64,000 nt of DNA from Hahellaceae bacterium. Its GTDB lineage: Bacteria > Pseudomonadota > Gammaproteobacteria > Pseudomonadales > Oleiphilaceae. This document shows positions 5,931 through 16,502 of the stretch, one piece after another. The stretch covers positions 124,001 through 188,000 of the forward strand of contig JADGDV010000001.1 of NCBI GenBank assembly GCA_016744695.1, given 5' to 3'. The notes beneath the pieces are model-generated. The model made no database searches. It was given only the letters and a program-made list of their open reading frames with translations, and was not told where the DNA came from. Position 1 is the stretch's first letter; each line of letters opens with the position of its first letter. Made by a program: the position numbers and the translations under genes.

Positions 5931-7526
5931 CTAGCTGAATTGGTTAGATGTGTTTTTAGCACCACCCGCTTTAAGAGCACGCTCACCAGCAAAGTATTCT
6001 TTGTGGTCATCGCCCATGTCTGAACCAGACATGTTCTGATGCTTAACACAAGCGATACCCTGACGGATCTCTTTACGCTGTACGCCAGCAACATAACCTA
6101 ACATGCCCTGCTCACCGAAGTACTCTTTAGCCAAGTTATCAACAGACAATGCAGTCGTGTGATAAGTAGGTAGAGTGATCAAGTGATGGAATACGTTAGC
6201 TTCACGAGCAGTATCTGCTTGGAAAGTCTTAATACGTGCATCAGCAGTAGCAGATAATTCTGAATCATCATACTTAGCTTGCATAAGCTCATCACGATTG
6301 TATGCAGAAACATCTTCACCCGCTTCAACCATTGCGTCAAATGCTTGCTGACGGAAGTTTAAAGTCCAGTTGAACGAAGGAGAGTTGTTATAAACAAGCT
6401 TCGCGTTTGGATGCACTTTACGAACGTCATCCATCATTCCAGCAATTTCGCTTACTGTTGGTACTGCAGTTTCGATCCAAAGTAGATCAGCGCCTGCATT
6501 TAGAGCACCAATACAATCGAATACGCAACGCTCATGACCAGTACCTTGACGGAACTGATATAGACCAGAAGGTAAACGCTTAGGACGAACTAGCTTGCCA
6601 CCACGATTAAATACAACATCGCCTTCAGCCATGTCAGCTACGTCGATTTCTTCAACATCTAAGTAAGAGTTATAGATATCACCAGAATCGCCTGGCTCGC
6701 TAACAACAGCGATTTCTTTAGTAAGACCAGCACCTTCAGAGTCTGTACGTGCACAGATAAGACCGTTGTCGATACCTAGCTCAAGGAAAGCGTGACGCAA
6801 TGCACGAATCTTAGAGTGGAAGTCAGCATGAGGAACAGTTACTTTACCGTCCTGGTGACCACATTGCTTTTCATCAGCAACTTGGTTTTCGATCTGTAGG
6901 CAACAAGCACCTGCTTCGATCATCTGCTTAGCCATTAGGTAAGTCGCTTCAGCGTTACCAAAACCAGCATCGATATCTGCAACTATTGGCACAACGTGAG
7001 TCACGTGACCATCAATAGCCGCTTGAACTTTAGCAACTTCTGCAGAATCGCCAGCTTCAGTAGCCGCGTCTAGAGCACGGAAAAGACCGCCTAGTTCACG
7101 TGCATCAGCTTGACGTAGGAATGTGTATAGCTCTTTAACCAACGCTGCAACAGAAGTTTTCTCGTGCATAGACTGATCAGGAAGTGGACCGAAATCAGAA
7201 CGTAAAGCAGCAACCATCCAACCAGAAAGGTACAAGTAACGACGGTCAGTTTTTCCACCGAAGTGCTTCTTGATTGAAATCATTTTTTGTTGGCCAACAA
7301 AACCGTGCCAGCAACCTAGAGACTGTGTGTATTTAGTCTTGTCTGCGTCGAATGCAGCCATGTCAGCATTCATGATATCAGCAGTGTATTGCGCTATATC
7401 AAGACCAGTCTTGAATTTGTTTTGAGCGCGCATGCGTGCAATTGACTCTGGGTTGATTGCTGCCCAGCTATCACCATTAGCTTCTACTACTGCTGCAACC
7501 GATTTGATATCGTCTTGATATGACAT
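5931..7526 (-). CDS. aceA: Isocitrate lyase (long, about 530 aa type)
   Basis: Full-length ICL/PEP mutase superfamily protein; VADIDAGFGNAEATYLMAKQMIEAGACCLQIENQVADEKQCGHQDGK. Confidence 0.95.
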   Translation of the reverse strand: MSYQDDIKSVAAVVEANGDSWAAINPESIARMRAQNKFKTGLDIAQYTADIMNADMAAFDADKTKYTQSLGCWHGFVGQQKMISIKKHFGGKTDRRYLYLSGWMVAALRSDFGPLPDQSMHEKTSVAALVKELYTFLRQADARELGGLFRALDAATEAGDSAEVAKVQAAIDGHVTHVVPIVADIDAGFGNAEATYLMAKQMIEAGACCLQIENQVADEKQCGHQDGKVTVPHADFHSKIRALRHAFLELGIDNGLICARTDSEGAGLTKEIAVVSEPGDSGDIYNSYLDVEEIDVADMAEGDVVFNRGGKLVRPKRLPSGLYQFRQGTGHERCVFDCIGALNAGADLLWIETAVPTVSEIAGMMDDVRKVHPNAKLVYNNSPSFNWTLNFRQQAFDAMVEAGEDVSAYNRDELMQAKYDDSELSATADARIKTFQADTAREANVFHHLITLPTYHTTALSVDNLAKEYFGEQGMLGYVAGVQRKEIRQGIACVKHQNMSGSDMGDDHKEYFAGERALKAGGAKNTSNQFS

Positions 7527-9143: not shown

Positions 9144-10013
9144 ATGTATAAGAGCGCTATGAAAACTCCAAAAAGAATACAACCACTAATTGAAGACGGC
9201 ATAGTCGACGAAGTTGTGCGCCAACTTATGAGCGGTAAAGAAGCCACTGTTTATGTTGTGCGTTGCGGCTCAGAGATTCGCTGCGCTAAAGTTTACAAAG
9301 AAGCTGCCAAGCGTAGCTTTAAGCAAGCCGTGCAATATCAGGAAGGCCGAAAAGTACGAAATAGCCGTCGCGCACGCGCCATGGAAAAGAACTCCAAATT
9401 TGGCCGCAAGCAGCAGGAAGACATTTGGCACAACGCTGAAGTCGATGCTCTTTATAAGCTAGCCAGTGCAGGTGTGCGTGTACCACAGCCCTACGGATGC
9501 TTTGATGGCGTATTAATTATGGAGCTCGTTACCGATGATTCTGGTGAAGTAGCCCCTCGCCTTAATGATGTATCCATGTCAGCTGAACAAGCACGAGAAG
9601 ATCACACGATTGTCATGCAATACGTTCAACGAATGCTTTGCGTGGGTATCGTACATGGCGATCTCTCAGAATTTAATGTATTAGTCGATGACTATGGCCC
9701 CGTTATTATAGATCTACCCCAAGCCGTTGATGCCGCGGCAAATAACCATGCAGAAACCATGCTTGCCCGTGACATTAACAACATGACCGCCTATTACGGA
9801 CAATACGCCCCCGAATTACTAGAGAGCAAGTACGCAAAAGAAATGTGGGCCTTATACGAGGAAGGTGATCTTACGCCTGAAACAGAGCTAACAGGATTTT
9901 TTGCAGAAGATACACAAGAAGCTGACGTAGACTCTGTGGTTCAAGAGATTAAAGCCGCGTTTGCAGAAGAGCAAGAACGCAAAGAACGCATAAGAGATGC
10001 AGAAGAACTGTAG
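9144..10013 (+). CDS. RIO-type serine/threonine kinase
   Basis: MSGKEATVYVV, IVHGDLSEFNVLV, VIIDLPQAVD; PA4780-type bacterial RIO kinase. Confidence 0.9.
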   Translation: MYKSAMKTPKRIQPLIEDGIVDEVVRQLMSGKEATVYVVRCGSEIRCAKVYKEAAKRSFKQAVQYQEGRKVRNSRRARAMEKNSKFGRKQQEDIWHNAEVDALYKLASAGVRVPQPYGCFDGVLIMELVTDDSGEVAPRLNDVSMSAEQAREDHTIVMQYVQRMLCVGIVHGDLSEFNVLVDDYGPVIIDLPQAVDAAANNHAETMLARDINNMTAYYGQYAPELLESKYAKEMWALYEEGDLTPETELTGFFAEDTQEADVDSVVQEIKAAFAEEQERKERIRDAEEL

Positions 10014-10019
10014 CTAAAA

Positions 10020-10478
10020 CTACAGTTCCTCAACCTCATGTACGTTTTCAGCTTCATCATCATAAGTAAAAGCGCCCAAAAAGGTCGTATACTTATCTTT
10101 TTCAACACCTGAAAGTTTTGCACTGTATTCATATTCGAAGAGTAATATGATCCAGGTAATATTTTCTAACTTCTTCTTCCTTGCTTTGCTCATTAACACA
10201 TCAATATAAGACGATGAAAACGAACATTCCCCTGCTGCTTTTTTAACACTGACAGTGCCAGCCTGTGCACCATTAGTTTCCATGTTTTCAGGGTTGAAAT
10301 AGTTAAGATTATAACCTTCAGACCAGGTATTTACTGCTCTAGTATTTTTCTTACTGAACGTTTCTTCAAAATACTCATCTGGAATATCCTCGTATGGGTG
10401 TTGAGAAACCCATACAGAAACCTTCTTTTTCTTGGTAAAGTCATGTCCCTTAGATTCTTTAGGATGCATTAGTTTCAT
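10020..10478 (-). CDS. Imm22/DUF4284-like hypothetical protein (possible immunity protein)
   Basis: KVSVWVSQHPYEDIPDEYFEETF ... CSFSSSYIDVL ... YTTFLGAFTYDDE, recalling the N-terminal VSVW and C-terminal FLGxFxY pattern of Imm22; from memory, not searched. Confidence 0.5.
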   Translation of the reverse strand: MKLMHPKESKGHDFTKKKKVSVWVSQHPYEDIPDEYFEETFSKKNTRAVNTWSEGYNLNYFNPENMETNGAQAGTVSVKKAAGECSFSSSYIDVLMSKARKKKLENITWIILLFEYEYSAKLSGVEKDKYTTFLGAFTYDDEAENVHEVEEL

Positions 10479-10653
10479 CTCCAGACTCTAGACTCTCTTC
10501 CGCTCCGGAACGCGGAGCAGCACCCTCTTCAAGCGCTAACTTCTCTCTTTCAGCTTTTGAAATATATTTAGGTTTGTTTTTTAAACGATTTTTAGCGTTA
10601 GATCTTTTGGTCCACTTTTTAATCGTATCTTTAACTTTCTTTTTTCTATTCAC
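10459..10653 (-). CDS. Small basic DUF2986-like protein
   Basis: MNRKKKVKDTIKKWTKRSNAKNRLKNKPKYISKAEREKLA matches the remembered DUF2986 pattern. Confidence 0.65.
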   Translation of the reverse strand: MNRKKKVKDTIKKWTKRSNAKNRLKNKPKYISKAEREKLALEEGAAPRSGAEESLESGDETNAS

Positions 10654-10660
10654 GTTAAAA

Positions 10661-11239
10661 CTACTCTTCTAGCATCTGAACATTATTACTAGGAATATCT
10701 TTAATAAAATAAGCCAAACCCAATCGGTTCAGATATTCCATCCGACCCACAGTAGATGGATCAAGATCAGATAAACTTAATTTATTTCGACTGTATATTT
10801 CACGTAAATACTGAATATAGGTATTTTCATCATCGAGCAACATCGTCGCGCCCCCTACATCTGTTTTTACGTTTTCATTTAACTCTTCAGGCAGAGAAAC
10901 AGCCAAAACAACCGCATTCTCATCAACGCCAAAGTGAGTTTTACGCGCTTCTACTTTTTGGCAAGCCCAGTAATAAGCCAACTCTTTACTTTGCGTTAAA
11001 TACACAGGCTCTTTTCGCTCGGTATAAGAGTTCCCAATAGTCGCCATCGCATTCTTGGTCATCTTATTTAACTCTGCATCACCTGACCCTTTTAAACCCT
11101 GCTCAAGAATAACGCTTGCCAAACCTGATGTTGTACCGTGATACCAGCATTCGCCGATAATAAATCCATCAGCAGATAATCTTTCACTAGCATCTTGTAA
11201 GTAACTTGGAGCTTCAAATTTTGTCATATTCTTTGCCAT
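10661..11239 (-). CDS. Hypothetical protein with ADP-ribosyltransferase-fold-like signature
   Basis: CWYHGTTSGLASVILEQGLKGSG ... EPVYLTQSKELAYYWACQK ... NAVVLAVSLPEE; HGT plus vyLt...A..yA arrangement as in ART/KptA-like folds. Confidence 0.5.
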   Translation of the reverse strand: MAKNMTKFEAPSYLQDASERLSADGFIIGECWYHGTTSGLASVILEQGLKGSGDAELNKMTKNAMATIGNSYTERKEPVYLTQSKELAYYWACQKVEARKTHFGVDENAVVLAVSLPEELNENVKTDVGGATMLLDDENTYIQYLREIYSRNKLSLSDLDPSTVGRMEYLNRLGLAYFIKDIPSNNVQMLEE

Positions 11240-11375
11240 AGTATGCAGTCGTTGTTTACGATATTAAGAAAGTTGATAATGTAAGCGTTCAAGAAAGGAT
11301 TATAACAGGCTTATAGAAGGTTGTTTACGACCACTAATAAATCAGTGGTCGTAATTTACAGCTTATTTACTTTTT

Positions 11376-13433
11376 CTAGCTAGACTTCCAGGTTTTGCGG
11401 GCCTCTAAAGCTAATTCTCTAACCTTATCGATATCTGCATCTGTATAAGCACCGTTTACACCCGAAATTGCGGCAAGCTTCATTCCATGCTTAATACCCA
11501 AACGGTATATCTCTTTAACTTTCTCCCACTCAGTGTTTCGACCGATAGTGAAGACCTCAAAACGTCCTTCAAGTGCCAGTACAATGGTTTCTGCCATGCA
11601 GGCAAACACAACGTTGTCAGGCAACTGAATACTTCTCATATCTAACTTACCCGGCACCTCAATTTCACCAGACTCAATAACCAATACGTCAGGACGCTTA
11701 GCTACTTCATTGGCGGGTAAATCAAGTGGGCGAGCAACATCGGTAATAACACACCCAGGCTTAACCTTCATGATATCCAGTATTTTCTTACCAGCACCCG
11801 AGGTAGACGTTACCACAACATCCATATCACCTAACTGGTCATCCGGGTTAGTCGTGATGAATACATTCGCATCTGGTGTATCTTCAAGAATTGAATTTTT
11901 AAGCTTTGTTAACGTTTTTTCATTTCGACCAGCAAGATACACCTCATCGAAAGCCATCGCTAATAAGCGAGCCGACACAGAACCTATAGACCCTGTAGCG
12001 CCAATAACCATTGATTTAGCCGGGATTCTCTTACCTTCTTCTGCTTTAACTAACTTGAGTCGCTTCATCGCATCAGCAGCAGCCCATAAAGCACCTGAAG
12101 CACTATAACTATTACCTGTAGTAATAGGCAGACTTGATCTTTTTGCAACAGTAACGCCCGCATCACCAACAACCTTAGTGAATGCGCCTAAACCTAAAAT
12201 CTGTGCACCTAACTTTTCAGCCATTTTTGATGCAGCAAGAAGTCGCTTATACGTAAACTCAGGGCTATGAGATAGCATTTCTTTGGGTGTACCACCAACA
12301 GTAATCAACCAGCCTTCAGCCTCAGCACCACAAGGTGACTTAATGCCTTTAACCTCTGAATAAATCATAGGCGGAGCATGCGCTATAGCCTTTTCAACCG
12401 CGTTCATTAATTGCGTATGGGCAAAGCGCTTAGGTATTGGCGTAACATTTCGAATATACTCCTGAGAAAGCGGATGTATAACGAATGCAAACCGTTTAAT
12501 ATTTCTAAACTCACCCGTTGGATGCAATAAGCGAGGCTTAATATCCAATTCTTTTATAATATCTTCAATATCTGCACAAGCTAACTCGTCAGCAGGAATA
12601 TCTGATGCTGCGAGAATCATTGCCTCAAGTACACTAACACCCACCATCTGGTCAAACACACTCGGTGAGACATCGATAGCTAAATTGACTTTTACTTCTT
12701 TGAAAAATTCAAAATCTTCATCGGTTACAAAAGAAGTAATGACTGTTTTATCAGCCAAATTTTCTAAGTTACCGTATTTTCTCAAGTCTGAACATTTACC
12801 CACTACCACATGAGAGTCTTTCATTGCCTTGCCAACTAAGTGTTTTTTCACTTTAGGTAACGAAGGTATATGACGCTTTTCAGTATCAATAGGCGAGACT
12901 TTATTGAGGTTATAACGACCTCTTGCATAAAGCTCTAAAGCTGAAATAGATTTCAAAAATGTAGGTAAACCACTTTGAATAACAGAATCAGCAAACTTAA
13001 GGTTTGGTGTATATTCTGACATCAGCATAGCCATTTCATAGTTGGCCATACCTGACAAAAATAATACTTTGTTATTGTTAAAATAGTGCCCTAATTCCTT
13101 TTGGGTATGTCTAATAGCAGAACATTGAAGCAAACGGCGAACCCTTGCCCCAGTGGTAACAGGCACACGAGTAACAACCCGTGTTAACTTCTGTGTTTCA
13201 GGGCTTTCAAATTTATACTCCCCCACATGAAGATCGTCCGTTACCATACCAACGCCCATTGCATCGCATTTGCTTTGCAATCGCTGGAGTTGCTCCCAGG
13301 CTTCAGTTTTGTTGCCATTAGTACCAATTCGCTTAACGGTAAAATCCTGATCAAGAAAATTAGTCTTAAACTCGTAATCTTGCTCGGAGGAGCCCAAGCT
13401 AATGTTGATTATTTTCTTCATAGTCTGATCCAT
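11376..13433 (-). CDS. Acyl-ACP-reductase-like / Rossmann-fold dehydrogenase (start probably M20 of the ORF-track model)
   Basis: FAFVIHPLSQEYIRN, AEGWLITVGGTPKEML, TTGNSYSASGALWAA, MVIGATGSIGSVSARLLA; architecture resembles cyanobacterial acyl-ACP reductase with an N-terminal extension. AAGGA upstream of ATG at 13433. Confidence 0.7.
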   Translation of the reverse strand: MDQTMKKIINISLGSSEQDYEFKTNFLDQDFTVKRIGTNGNKTEAWEQLQRLQSKCDAMGVGMVTDDLHVGEYKFESPETQKLTRVVTRVPVTTGARVRRLLQCSAIRHTQKELGHYFNNNKVLFLSGMANYEMAMLMSEYTPNLKFADSVIQSGLPTFLKSISALELYARGRYNLNKVSPIDTEKRHIPSLPKVKKHLVGKAMKDSHVVVGKCSDLRKYGNLENLADKTVITSFVTDEDFEFFKEVKVNLAIDVSPSVFDQMVGVSVLEAMILAASDIPADELACADIEDIIKELDIKPRLLHPTGEFRNIKRFAFVIHPLSQEYIRNVTPIPKRFAHTQLMNAVEKAIAHAPPMIYSEVKGIKSPCGAEAEGWLITVGGTPKEMLSHSPEFTYKRLLAASKMAEKLGAQILGLGAFTKVVGDAGVTVAKRSSLPITTGNSYSASGALWAAADAMKRLKLVKAEEGKRIPAKSMVIGATGSIGSVSARLLAMAFDEVYLAGRNEKTLTKLKNSILEDTPDANVFITTNPDDQLGDMDVVVTSTSGAGKKILDIMKVKPGCVITDVARPLDLPANEVAKRPDVLVIESGEIEVPGKLDMRSIQLPDNVVFACMAETIVLALEGRFEVFTIGRNTEWEKVKEIYRLGIKHGMKLAAISGVNGAYTDADIDKVRELALEARKTWKSS

Positions 13434-13479
13434 TGTTCCTTGCTGTCGTTTGTGCAGTACAGTGTATTTTTTAACACGA

Positions 13480-13530
13480 CTCTTTTGCATAACAAGGCCT
13501 TAAAGAAGACAGCTCCGTTATGCAAAAGAG
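13480..13530. repeat. 14-bp perfect inverted repeat upstream of the acyl-ACP-reductase-like gene
   Basis: CTCTTTTGCATAAC (13480-13493) / GTTATGCAAAAGAG (13517-13530), 23-nt spacer. Confidence 0.9.
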
Positions 13531-13600
13531 ATGATTAGCTATTTATCGTTTTCGTTACTGCTAATTCTAGATACTACTTTTGTTTTTACCAGTTCAGGTA

Positions 13601-15289
13601 TTAAGACTGTTGAGATTCCCAAACAAAACGTACTTTTGACTCACGGAACTTGTCGCACAATGGACCGTATTTTTTCTCAACTTCATTACGCTTAATTTTC
13701 ATAGTTGGTGTCAACATACCATTTTCTGGTGTCCACACATCGTCAACAACAAAAATTCGATCGATAATTTCATGATGCTCAAGCTCTTTATTAACACTCA
13801 TCGCTGTTTTCATGATGTCATCTTCAATTTCCTGAGCGGCTTCAGGCAATCGTGACTTAGCGTCTTCAGTTAACTCTATTAATACGATCGGCTGAGAATG
13901 ACCAGAACCTGCTACACAAATTTGTTCAATATTTGTATTTCTATGCAGTAAGCCTTCTAACTTGTTAGGCTGAACAAACTTTCCTTTTGAAGTTTTAAAT
14001 ACATCTTTTACTCGGCCAGTAATCGTTAAGTAACCATCACTATCAATCTCACCACGGTCACCAGTATGTAACCAACCATCTATAATAGTTTCTGCCGTTT
14101 TCTCTGGCTCTAAATAGTAGCCTTTCATTAGTGAAGGAGAACGTACAATAATTTCGCCCTCTTCTGTAATGCGCACTTCATTATGAGGAAGAGACTTAAT
14201 TGAACCTACTGAACCAATCTTCACAGCACCCGGCATATTGATAGCTGGACCATAAGCTAGGTTCTCAGTCATACCATAACCTTCATTGATATCGATACCA
14301 ATTTTGGCATACCACTCAAGTAGACTCTTAGCAATTGGTGAAGCGCCAGATACAACAATACGTGCTTTATTTAAACCAAGTGCTTTCTTAATCTTACAGC
14401 GAACAATACGGTTAAGCAGAGGAACACGAAGTAATTTGTTTAATTTTTCTTCAGGCATTTTTGCAGAGATTTGCTGCTGAAACTTCTTCCATAAACGTGG
14501 AACAGCAAAGAATACGGTAGGTAATGTATCTTGTAAGTTCTGAGCAAATGTATCAAGTGACTCTACAAATGTAACCGTTGCCCCACCATACGTTGAACAA
14601 CCCAACACCATGAAACGCTCAGCAATATGAGAAAGAGGCAAGAAAGATAGAAAACGATCCTGACGACCTACAGGCAGAGTATCGGCCGCATTTTGAGCAC
14701 CAAAGCTAAAGCTACCATAGGTGTGCATTACACCTTTAGGGTTACCAGTAGTGCCTGATGTATAAATGAGTGTCATTAAATCATCCATACCGTGTACTGG
14801 CTGAGCCGTTGTAGGCTCATACTTGGCTAGTAAGTTACCCCATTGATGTTCAATTTGCATATCAATCGGATATGGCATACCAATACGAATAACATTAGCA
14901 GGAATACCTGATTCCATATCTTTAGCGCCATCTAATTTACCAATAATGATCGCTTTTGATTCACTGTGATTTATCACGTATTCAATCGATTCAGGTGACT
15001 GCATCGGATACAGTGGAACACTAATTAAACTGGCTAACTGAATTGCGTAATCAGTAATGAACCATTCAGCCGAGTTCTTCGCAAGAATAGCAACACGATC
15101 ACCCTTCTCAAGCCCTAAACCCAATAAAGCAGACGCCATCCGTCGGGCCTGATCATCAACTTCTTTCCATGTAAACTCTTTATATTCACCATCGATAGGC
15201 TGGCGTAAAAAGACAGAATTTGGTGACGCTTTGACCCAGTTCTGAACTTTTTCAAGAGGAGTTAGATAAACCGCATTATTGTTAGTCAT
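13601..15289 (-). CDS. AMP-binding long-chain acyl-CoA (or acyl-ACP) synthetase
   Basis: TLIYTSGTTGNPKGVMHTY, EGYGMTEN, GWLHTGDRGEIDSDGYLTITGRVKDVFKTSKGKF. Confidence 0.93.
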   Translation of the reverse strand: MTNNNAVYLTPLEKVQNWVKASPNSVFLRQPIDGEYKEFTWKEVDDQARRMASALLGLGLEKGDRVAILAKNSAEWFITDYAIQLASLISVPLYPMQSPESIEYVINHSESKAIIIGKLDGAKDMESGIPANVIRIGMPYPIDMQIEHQWGNLLAKYEPTTAQPVHGMDDLMTLIYTSGTTGNPKGVMHTYGSFSFGAQNAADTLPVGRQDRFLSFLPLSHIAERFMVLGCSTYGGATVTFVESLDTFAQNLQDTLPTVFFAVPRLWKKFQQQISAKMPEEKLNKLLRVPLLNRIVRCKIKKALGLNKARIVVSGASPIAKSLLEWYAKIGIDINEGYGMTENLAYGPAINMPGAVKIGSVGSIKSLPHNEVRITEEGEIIVRSPSLMKGYYLEPEKTAETIIDGWLHTGDRGEIDSDGYLTITGRVKDVFKTSKGKFVQPNKLEGLLHRNTNIEQICVAGSGHSQPIVLIELTEDAKSRLPEAAQEIEDDIMKTAMSVNKELEHHEIIDRIFVVDDVWTPENGMLTPTMKIKRNEVEKKYGPLCDKFRESKVRFVWESQQS

Positions 15290-15476
15290 TGGTAGTCCTA
15301 TATTGTGCTATTAAGCCTTATTGTTTTAATACCCGTTTTTTAATAAACGTTTGGTATATGCATATTTTAGAAGAGCTATTCTAATGAAGTGAAGATACGA
15401 AGTATTGACTCAAAAGTACAGTTATTGACAGCAAACGCCAAAATATAAAAAGAATTAAGTCTTATTTAGAATTTAA

Positions 15477-16502
15477 CTACTTGGAGGGTTTGGGGTTATT
15501 TAAATAAAGCTGCTGGAATTCTTTAGGTGTACAGCCTTGCCAGCGCTTAAAAGCACGTTGAAAAGCACTCTGCTCTGAAAAGCCTAGTTTAATCGAGATT
15601 GTCATTAGAGACTGCCCCGCCTTTAAGGAATCCATAGCCACATTTCGCTTTACCTCAGAATATAAAGCCTTCAAGGTATAACCATGTTTATGTAACTGTC
15701 GTTGCAAGGTCCTAGGGCTAATAGACAAATTATTACTCACATGATCAAGAGACAACACATCAGGTAATGCGCTCACCAATATTTGGCTAACTTTTTCGAC
15801 AACCCCTACCTGAATTTGAGCAACGAGCTTTTTACGGGCTAAACCTTCATAAAACTCACGCAAGTCACGATCAGGAGTAAGCAAAGTAAGAGATAACGTG
15901 GATTTATTGCATATAATTTGGTCAATAGGTTGATCAAATAAAACAGGGCACCCCAAAAGGGATTCAATATACTTAATATCTCGCCCATTTAAGCTGTGCT
16001 TGAAATTAACCTGTATAAAAACATCGCTATCTGAATTCAAAACGTAGTTATTTATAAAGCTTGTACGTCTAGCGAACACCTCCTCAACAAGGTGAGTGGT
16101 AACTGAAACGTCTGATTTCCATTTAACATAAAGTTCATCGCCAACCGTAACAAGCTCAAAGTGATCAAAATTACGAACAAGGCTTGAATATCGTAACTGA
16201 TACCTTAAAACATCCGCAACCGTTTCGCAGGTACTAGCAAGTAAACCAAAATCACTCCCTACATCAGGGGTAGAGTCAGCACCAAAAGAAAAACCAAGAT
16301 AGACATCACCGGTTATATCTTCGCCCAATTCATAAATTCGGTTATAGACAGTAGAAGAGAAAAAGAAGTCTGGATTGTTGAGATCGACCTCATTCGTCCC
16401 AATTTTCCATAAAAGATCATCGCGAGAGTAGCCTTTTTTGGCTATGTGGTTAACCAAGCCACGCACCATTTTGCTAACAATTTTGGTTTGATCTAAATGC
16501 AT
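15477..16502 (-). CDS. AraC-family transcriptional regulator
   Basis: C-terminal HTH: LSISPRTLQRQLHKHGYTLKALYSEVKRNVA...GFSEQSAFQRAFKRWQGCTPKEFQ. Confidence 0.9.
   Translation of the reverse strand: MHLDQTKIVSKMVRGLVNHIAKKGYSRDDLLWKIGTNEVDLNNPDFFFSSTVYNRIYELGEDITGDVYLGFSFGADSTPDVGSDFGLLASTCETVADVLRYQLRYSSLVRNFDHFELVTVGDELYVKWKSDVSVTTHLVEEVFARRTSFINNYVLNSDSDVFIQVNFKHSLNGRDIKYIESLLGCPVLFDQPIDQIICNKSTLSLTLLTPDRDLREFYEGLARKKLVAQIQVGVVEKVSQILVSALPDVLSLDHVSNNLSISPRTLQRQLHKHGYTLKALYSEVKRNVAMDSLKAGQSLMTISIKLGFSEQSAFQRAFKRWQGCTPKEFQQLYLNNPKPSK

What the first reader, a model, noticed from the sequence alone, without database searches (positions are those of the whole stretch)
10020..11239. Candidate ART-fold protein / DUF2986 / Imm22-like cassette (possible toxin-immunity-like unit)
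Three minus-strand genes are packed tightly: 7 nt between genes 1 and 2, and a 20-nt overlap between genes 2 and 3. Gene 1 (192 aa) carries YHGTTSGLASVILEQGLKGSG followed by VYLTQSKELAYYWA, the spacing typical of ADP-ribosyltransferase/KptA-like folds. Gene 3 (152 aa) resembles Imm22/DUF4284 immunity proteins (VSVWV...FLGAFTY). Gene 2 is a small Lys/Arg-rich DUF2986-like protein, an unusual middle partner that could bind nucleic acid. An ART-like enzyme next to an immunity-like protein without a secretion-toxin N-terminus would be a novel arrangement. The family calls come from motif memory.
Basis: partly seen in the sequence, partly recalled or inferred. Interest (0 to 1): 0.72.

Follow-up and report, generated by a model that had tools for sequence, protein, structure and literature searches.

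The report
Enzyme-like protein paired with isocitrate lyase
The supposed toxin gene is not part of a toxin-immunity pair; it is an undescribed ADP-ribosyltransferase-fold protein that, across many marine bacteria, goes with one branch of isocitrate lyase (a key enzyme for growth on fats and acetate), which makes it a candidate regulator of that enzyme.

Summary
The three minus-strand genes are where stated, with the stated 7-nt gap and 20-nt overlap. Gene 2 is DUF2986 (PF11661, E 1.8e-16) and gene 3 is Imm22/DUF4284 (PF14112, E 8.4e-32). Gene 1 has no family hit, but its predicted fold is ART-like.

The toxin-immunity reading is not supported. None of 80 gene 1 loci from other genomes has DUF2986 or Imm22 within the flanks examined. 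Genus-mates carry Imm22 elsewhere.

Instead, gene 1 tracks isocitrate lyase (ICL). In 67 of 80 loci ICL lies directly upstream on the same strand, often with malate synthase and a LysR regulator. Among 98 relatives, the 18 genomes with gene 1 are exactly the 18 with the most window-like ICL. On an ICL tree all gene 1-associated ICLs fall in one clade (support 99); only two sequences in it lack gene 1. Genomes with an unlinked gene 1, including this one, still carry that ICL clade. A terminator usually separates the two genes, so co-transcription does not explain the link.

Best reading: an undescribed ART-fold family, a dedicated partner of one ICL clade, probably regulating the glyoxylate shunt. 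The pairing is well supported; the mechanism is inferred.

The parts
10661..11239 (-). Gene 1: ART-fold protein, 192 aa; partner of an isocitrate lyase clade (unlinked subfamily)
   Evidence: ORF; model and Foldseek; homologues and context
11132..11146 (-). Motif 1 region, W-Y-H-G-T (residues 32-36; H34), invariant in 63 aligned homologues
   Evidence: Alignment A2; weak Tpt1/KptA matches over this stretch
10994..11008 (-). Motif 2 region, P-V-Y-L-T (residues 78-82); Tyr here, Phe in most homologues
   Evidence: Alignments A1 and A2; strand E79-82 in the model
11240..11375 (-). Intergenic region upstream of gene 1: inverted repeat ACGACCACTGATTTATTAGTGGTCGT, then a TATAAT-like sequence; gene 1 probably starts its own transcript
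   Evidence: Read directly from the sequence; promoter not tested
10459..10653 (-). Gene 2: DUF2986 small basic protein, 64 aa; next to gene 1 only in this genome among those examined
   Evidence: PF11661 E 1.8e-16; scattered distribution
10020..10478 (-). Gene 3: Imm22/DUF4284-family protein, 152 aa; next to gene 1 only in this genome among those examined
   Evidence: PF14112 E 8.4e-32; elsewhere in genus-mates
5931..7526 (-). Isocitrate lyase (aceA, 531-aa type), member of the gene 1-associated clade; 3.1 kb downstream of gene 1 here
   Evidence: NF005074 E 2.5e-300, PF00463; clade placement and diagnostic residues

Best explanation
Gene 1 belongs to an undescribed family of small, stand-alone, probably cytoplasmic ART-fold proteins (about 190 aa) that is a dedicated partner of one clade of the 531-aa type isocitrate lyase. 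The family has two subfamilies: one encoded directly downstream of aceA in glyoxylate-shunt loci, and one, to which the window's copy belongs, encoded elsewhere in the genome. Most likely mechanism: the protein binds NAD+ (or a similar nucleotide) in its ART cleft and controls ICL when carbon flow switches to the glyoxylate shunt, either by mono-ADP-ribosylating the lyase or by binding it as a nucleotide sensor. It would then be the ICL-side counterpart of AceK control of isocitrate dehydrogenase. Shown: the family, the fold prediction, the link with the ICL clade even without gene linkage, and the usual terminator between the genes. Inferred: NAD binding, catalysis, ICL as target, direction of the effect. 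The DUF2986 and Imm22 genes are lineage-specific neighbours, not parts of the mechanism.
For: ICL directly upstream on the same strand in 67 of 80 loci, from Vibrionaceae, Oceanospirillaceae, Cellvibrionaceae, Spongiibacteraceae, Piscirickettsiaceae, Methylococcaceae, Hahellaceae and Endozoicomonadaceae. In 98 relatives the 18 genomes with gene 1 are exactly the 18 with the most window-like ICL (84% or more; the best full-length one without gene 1 is 78%), 13 linked and 5 not. Class-wide sample: gene 1 in 5 of 232 genomes, all 5 among the 22 with this ICL, and the 4 others directly linked. ICL tree: gene 1-associated sequences form one clade (SH-aLRT 99) with 2 exceptions; the label needs 2 changes against 28.7 by shuffling, 0 of 500 shuffles as low. 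All 9 ICLs recovered from 11 genomes with unlinked gene 1 fall in that clade. Unlinked gene 1 proteins form one clade, but their ICLs lie at several places in the ICL clade (6 changes), so partners were exchanged while the pairing held. Six ICL residues (A217, H237, L243, V275, F336, A344) mark the clade. Malate synthase lies in about 42 loci and LysR in 37. ART fold in two models.
Against: No biochemical data. The motif 3 Glu of H-Y-E ARTs is not recognisable (G174-L-A-Y177 at the strand), motif 2 Tyr is Phe in most members, and whole-chain TM-scores are low (0.3-0.4), so catalysis is unproven. No DraG-type ADP-ribosylglycohydrolase in this genome, and only 1 of the 15 gene 1 genomes tested has a match over the cut-off, so a reversible ADP-ribosylation cycle of the nitrogenase kind lacks its known eraser (macrodomains not tested). 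A terminator-like hairpin separates the genes in 48 of 59 cases, so they are not a simple operon. Two genomes of one family (G131, G244) have the ICL clade without gene 1. Two gene 1 genomes (G329 of 2.1 Mb, G335 of 4.3 Mb) gave no ICL match. Co-occurrence does not identify the target.
Confidence: 0.5

Rival explanations
1. Pseudoenzyme: the ART fold has lost transferase activity and the protein acts by binding ICL (or a nucleotide) as an allosteric or assembly factor, without ADP-ribosylation.
For: No recognisable motif 3 glutamate, motif 2 Tyr mostly Phe, no matching glycohydrolase in most gene 1 genomes tested. Strict pairing with one ICL clade and clade-specific ICL residues fit a binding partner.
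Against: Polar residues H34, T36, D54, S84, R99, D127 and R166 are invariant in 63 aligned homologues, more than a scaffold would seem to need. Tpt1/KptA also works without the canonical Glu (general knowledge).
Confidence: 0.27
2. Active ART with another target of the same physiological state (isocitrate dehydrogenase, malate synthase, a small molecule or an RNA); ICL is only a marker of that metabolism.
For: Loci also carry malate synthase and LysR. In the two genomes that have the ICL clade but lack gene 1, icd follows ICL.
Against: Presence follows an ICL clade more closely than the shunt as such: dozens of genomes with other ICL clades lack gene 1.
Confidence: 0.13
3. RNA 2'-phosphotransferase-like or nucleic-acid ART whose link with ICL is genetic hitchhiking (transfer as a pair).
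For: Nearest sequence match is Tpt1/KptA; patchy distribution across families.
Against: The Tpt1 N-lobe with its Arg-His and Arg, and the Arg before HVHLS, are absent (sequences). Hitchhiking does not explain the link in genomes where gene 1 is unlinked and of the other subfamily.
Confidence: 0.06
4. One reading: gene 1 is an intracellular ART toxin, Imm22 its immunity protein, DUF2986 a nucleic-acid-binding partner.
For: Tight packing in the window; ART fold and Imm22 family are real.
Against: The pairing is not found outside the window's own genome. Gene 1 is kept without any Imm22 gene in most genomes that have it. No delivery domain, no phage or viral copies, and one plasmid record, itself ICL-linked.
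Confidence: 0.03

Closest known systems
Tpt1/KptA tRNA 2'-phosphotransferase (PF01885)
   Same: ART-fold core with YHGT...GL motif 1; best sequence-profile match and among the best Foldseek matches; no canonical motif 3 Glu
   Different: Gene 1 lacks the N-terminal lobe and the catalytic R-H-R-R tetrad, scores below the PF01885 cut-off, and has two inserts with their own invariant residues (SGD; DxG of KPDVG)
H-Y-E ADP-ribosyltransferases (PARP, DarT, ParT and similar)
   Same: Fold, motif 1 H-G-T, motif 2 position [F/Y]-L-T
   Different: No recognisable motif 3 Glu/Asp; association with a metabolic enzyme rather than DNA, toxin or antitoxin
AceK, isocitrate dehydrogenase kinase/phosphatase
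   Same: Regulator encoded with glyoxylate-shunt genes (analogy only)
   Different: Unrelated protein family; present in 15 of 98 relatives and in only 2 of the 18 gene 1 genomes; acts on isocitrate dehydrogenase
DraT/DraG control of nitrogenase reductase
   Same: Precedent (general knowledge) for an ART that regulates a metabolic enzyme in bacteria
   Different: No DraG-like glycohydrolase in most gene 1 genomes tested; no DraT match
Imm22/DUF4284 immunity proteins
   Same: Gene 3 is a member by sequence
   Different: Known partner toxins are nucleases and Ntox domains (PMC3482391), none found beside it here

Membership tests
ADP-ribosyltransferase fold | Split beta-barrel ART fold | tested here: met
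   Two AlphaFold models; the top 36 PDB matches of the first and the top 16 of the second are ART folds, Foldseek probability 1.00 for Tpt1, but TM-score only 0.3-0.4
H-Y-E class ART | Motif 1 His in HG[ST] | tested here: met
   H34-G35-T36 invariant in 63 sequences
H-Y-E class ART | Motif 2 Tyr | tested here: inconclusive
   Tyr in the window; Phe in most, Cys in one
H-Y-E class ART | Motif 3 catalytic Glu/Asp/Gln | tested here: not met
   The C-terminal strand region reads LG[LM]AY in nearly all; no conserved acidic residue there
Tpt1/KptA (PF01885) | Score over the family cut-off | tested here: not met
   50 of 63 members match weakly, best E 0.0015; PF01885 finds no match in the window's genome
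Tpt1/KptA (PF01885) | N-lobe and Arg-His-Arg-Arg tetrad | tested here: not met
   Only 32 residues precede YHGT, against about 120 in the KptA sequences compared; Glu-Pro stands where KptA has Arg before HVHLS (sequences, aligned by eye)
Imm22 (PF14112) | Pfam gathering score | tested here: met
   111 bits against 27
Imm22 (PF14112) | Encoded next to a cognate toxin | tested here: not met
   Neighbour gene 1 is not conserved beside Imm22; genus-mates have other neighbours
DUF2986 (PF11661) | Pfam gathering score | tested here: met
   60.7 bits against 21.4
Toxin-immunity or toxin-antitoxin module | Conserved co-occurrence of both partners | tested here: not met
   0 of 80 loci
Toxin-immunity or toxin-antitoxin module | Toxicity relieved by the partner | not testable with these tools
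   Needs expression in a laboratory strain
ICL-clade partner (proposed here) | Presence follows one ICL clade, linked or not | tested here: met
   exceptions listed under evidence against

The most novel reading that the evidence does not exclude
A family of ADP-ribosyltransferases dedicated to isocitrate lyase: NAD+-dependent modification of the glyoxylate-shunt entry enzyme in marine gammaproteobacteria, coevolved with a distinct ICL clade.
Probability: 0.33. Interest if true: 0.85.

Novelty: new variant of a known kind. Interest (0 to 1): 0.6.

Why it matters
Control of the isocitrate branch point is known on the dehydrogenase side (AceK phosphorylation). Papers found here discuss acetylation of ICL, but I found none on an ADP-ribosyltransferase acting on it or encoded with it (open-access library only). 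A conserved ART-fold partner of one ICL clade in oil-degrading and other marine bacteria would add an NAD-linked control point to growth on acetate, fatty acids and alkanes. It also gives a simple test: two genes, usually adjacent, one a well-characterised enzyme. It further warns that an ART fold plus an immunity-family neighbour does not make a toxin system.

Tried and rejected
Toxin-immunity cassette: rejected by the co-occurrence survey. Phage or defence origin: no hits in viral contigs, phages or PADLOC; one plasmid hit, a 1.7-Mb Vibrio replicon with ICL adjacent. KptA membership: cut-off and tetrad not met. Simple ICL identity threshold as the predictor of gene 1: perfect in relatives but fails class-wide (77% with gene 1, 81-83% without), so it was replaced by the ICL tree and diagnostic residues. 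Replacement of AceK by gene 1: no clear pattern; AceK is absent from the window's whole family in the sample. DraG-type eraser: not associated. Operon with ICL: terminator-like hairpins argue against it (48 of 59 at -12 kcal/mol or below, against 0.8 in shuffles); a first, stricter hairpin scan found only 11 of 59 because it allowed no mismatches. Literature on DUF2986: none found.

Full report
OBSERVATION. The three ORFs, their lengths, the 7-nt gap and the 20-nt overlap are as described. Gene 2 is DUF2986 and gene 3 is Imm22/DUF4284, both well over Pfam cut-offs. Gene 1 hits no model over a cut-off in four libraries. It lies downstream of a 704-aa acyl-ACP-reductase-like gene, and gene 3 is convergent with a PA4780-family RIO1-like kinase.

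FOLD OF GENE 1. Homologues were found in 18 of 98 relatives including the window's genome, and at 167 loci in a genome collection, of which 80 were kept. An alignment of 63 sequences gave a model with pLDDT 86 and pTM 0.84. Its 36 best PDB matches are ART folds (pertussis toxin S1 E 9.4e-4; Tpt1 probability 1.00), though TM-scores are only 0.3-0.4. A second model, led by an ICL-linked homologue, gave the same picture. Sequence profiles agree weakly: 50 of 63 members match PF01885 (Tpt1/KptA), best E 0.0015, and Tpt1 structures 6e3a and 6ede match at E 0.03-0.04. Activity is not: H34 of YHGT is invariant, motif 2 is Phe in most members, and no conserved acidic residue stands where the motif 3 Glu is expected. 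Compared by eye with two real KptA proteins, the N-lobe and the Arg-His-Arg-Arg tetrad of Tpt1 are missing.

NOT A TOXIN-IMMUNITY UNIT. Neither DUF2986 nor Imm22 lies in the held flanks (up to 6 kb a side) of any of the 80 loci. Imm22 occurs in 6 of 98 relatives. In four genus-mates it sits at another place, beside ORFs that I recognise by eye as RluA-like and RecC-like. DUF2986 is scattered (14 of 98) without a common neighbour in the loci looked at. The paper that defined Imm22 lists ColD/E5, Tox-REase-4, Ntox49 and Ntox14 as partner toxins, not ARTs (PMC3482391). The three-gene packing is thus specific to this genome among those examined; it may well be one transcript here, but it is not a conserved module.

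THE REAL PARTNER IS ISOCITRATE LYASE. In 67 of the 80 loci the 531-aa type ICL is directly upstream on the same strand, in most cases by 110-260 bp. Malate synthase (G type in 31 loci, A type in 11) and a LysR regulator (37 loci) are the next most frequent neighbours, so these are glyoxylate-shunt loci. Among 98 relatives the 18 genomes with gene 1 are exactly those with the 18 most window-like ICLs (84-100% identity). ICLs of genomes without it are 78% or less, apart from an 89% fragment at a contig end in an incomplete genome, G036. An evenly drawn class sample gave 5 of 232 genomes with gene 1, all among the 22 with this ICL, and the four besides the window's are directly linked. By chance such an overlap would be about 5e-6, ignoring relatedness (my calculation). 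The one plasmid record with gene 1 also has ICL next to it.

TREES. Gene 1-associated ICLs form one clade with SH-aLRT 99, holding only two sequences without gene 1, both from one family whose ICL is followed by isocitrate dehydrogenase instead. The label needs 2 changes on the tree, against 28.7 on average by shuffling (0 of 500 as low). Eleven positions separate the clade from other ICLs; A217, H237, V275, F336 and A344 are fixed in the clade. A217 lies five residues before the Cys of the KQCGH loop (read from the sequence). Pseudomonas aeruginosa ICL (6g1o) has the other residues at positions such as 217, 237, 336 and 344.

LINKAGE IS NOT NEEDED. I then took 11 genomes where gene 1 is not beside ICL. 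Nine had an ICL, and all nine fall in the same clade with the diagnostic residues; the other two gave no ICL match. Unlinked gene 1 proteins, the window's included, form one side of the gene 1 tree (support 94). Their ICLs, however, lie at several places in the ICL clade (6 changes, at least 4 forced by well-supported branches). The window's ICL is sister to that of an Oleiphilus whose gene 1 is of the linked kind and only about 47% identical to the window's. So gene 1 copies were exchanged while the pairing with this ICL clade was kept. Hitchhiking does not explain that well; functional dependence does.

NOT A SIMPLE OPERON. Of 59 ICL-gene 1 spacers, 48 carry a terminator-like hairpin of -12 kcal/mol or better, against 0.8 in shuffles. 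Gene 1 therefore probably has its own promoter.

MECHANISM. The best-supported claim is the pairing. The most likely mechanism is control of ICL through the ART cleft, by ADP-ribosylation or by nucleotide-dependent binding. The lack of a recognisable Glu and the absence of DraG-type glycohydrolases in most gene 1 genomes tested keep the non-catalytic version close behind. AceK does not show a clear replacement pattern.

LITERATURE. Searches of the held open-access library found no report of an ART acting on, or encoded with, ICL. Only titles and abstract openings of these were looked at, except one paper searched for Imm22, so this is a limited negative.

VERDICT. Observation confirmed; toxin-immunity interpretation not supported; a stronger and more interesting association found. 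Novel as a family and as a pairing; mechanism open.

Noticed in passing
window 11376-16502 (-): A 704-aa protein whose C-terminal half resembles acyl-ACP reductase and PigE (no Pfam hit over cut-off) is preceded by an AMP-binding acyl ligase and an AraC regulator: a possible fatty acyl reduction locus.
   Followed up: no
window 9144-10013 (+): PA4780-family RIO1-like protein kinase, convergent with gene 3, with only 6 bp between the stops.
   Followed up: no
L168 924-4072 (-), L169 973-4101 (-): Two small genomes (2.2-2.4 Mb) have the gene 1-type ICL clade but no gene 1; isocitrate dehydrogenase follows ICL instead.
   Followed up: partly
L103 1090-2076 (-): The only Imm22 outside the genus among the relatives lies 12 bp from a 121-aa ORF that looks like an HNH nuclease (recognised by eye).
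   Followed up: no
L102, L104, L105, L106 around 1444-1920: In genus-mates Imm22 is a solitary chromosomal gene in a similar place near RluA-like and RecC-like ORFs (recognised by eye), so it may have a housekeeping role rather than immunity.
   Followed up: partly
L003-L006: In the window's genus the unlinked gene 1 is divergently transcribed from alanine dehydrogenase; in Bermanella and Thalassolituus it has other neighbours.
   Followed up: partly
window 5931-7526 (ICL residues 217, 237, 243, 275, 336, 344): A well-supported ICL subtype with fixed residue changes cuts across bacterial families.
   Followed up: partly
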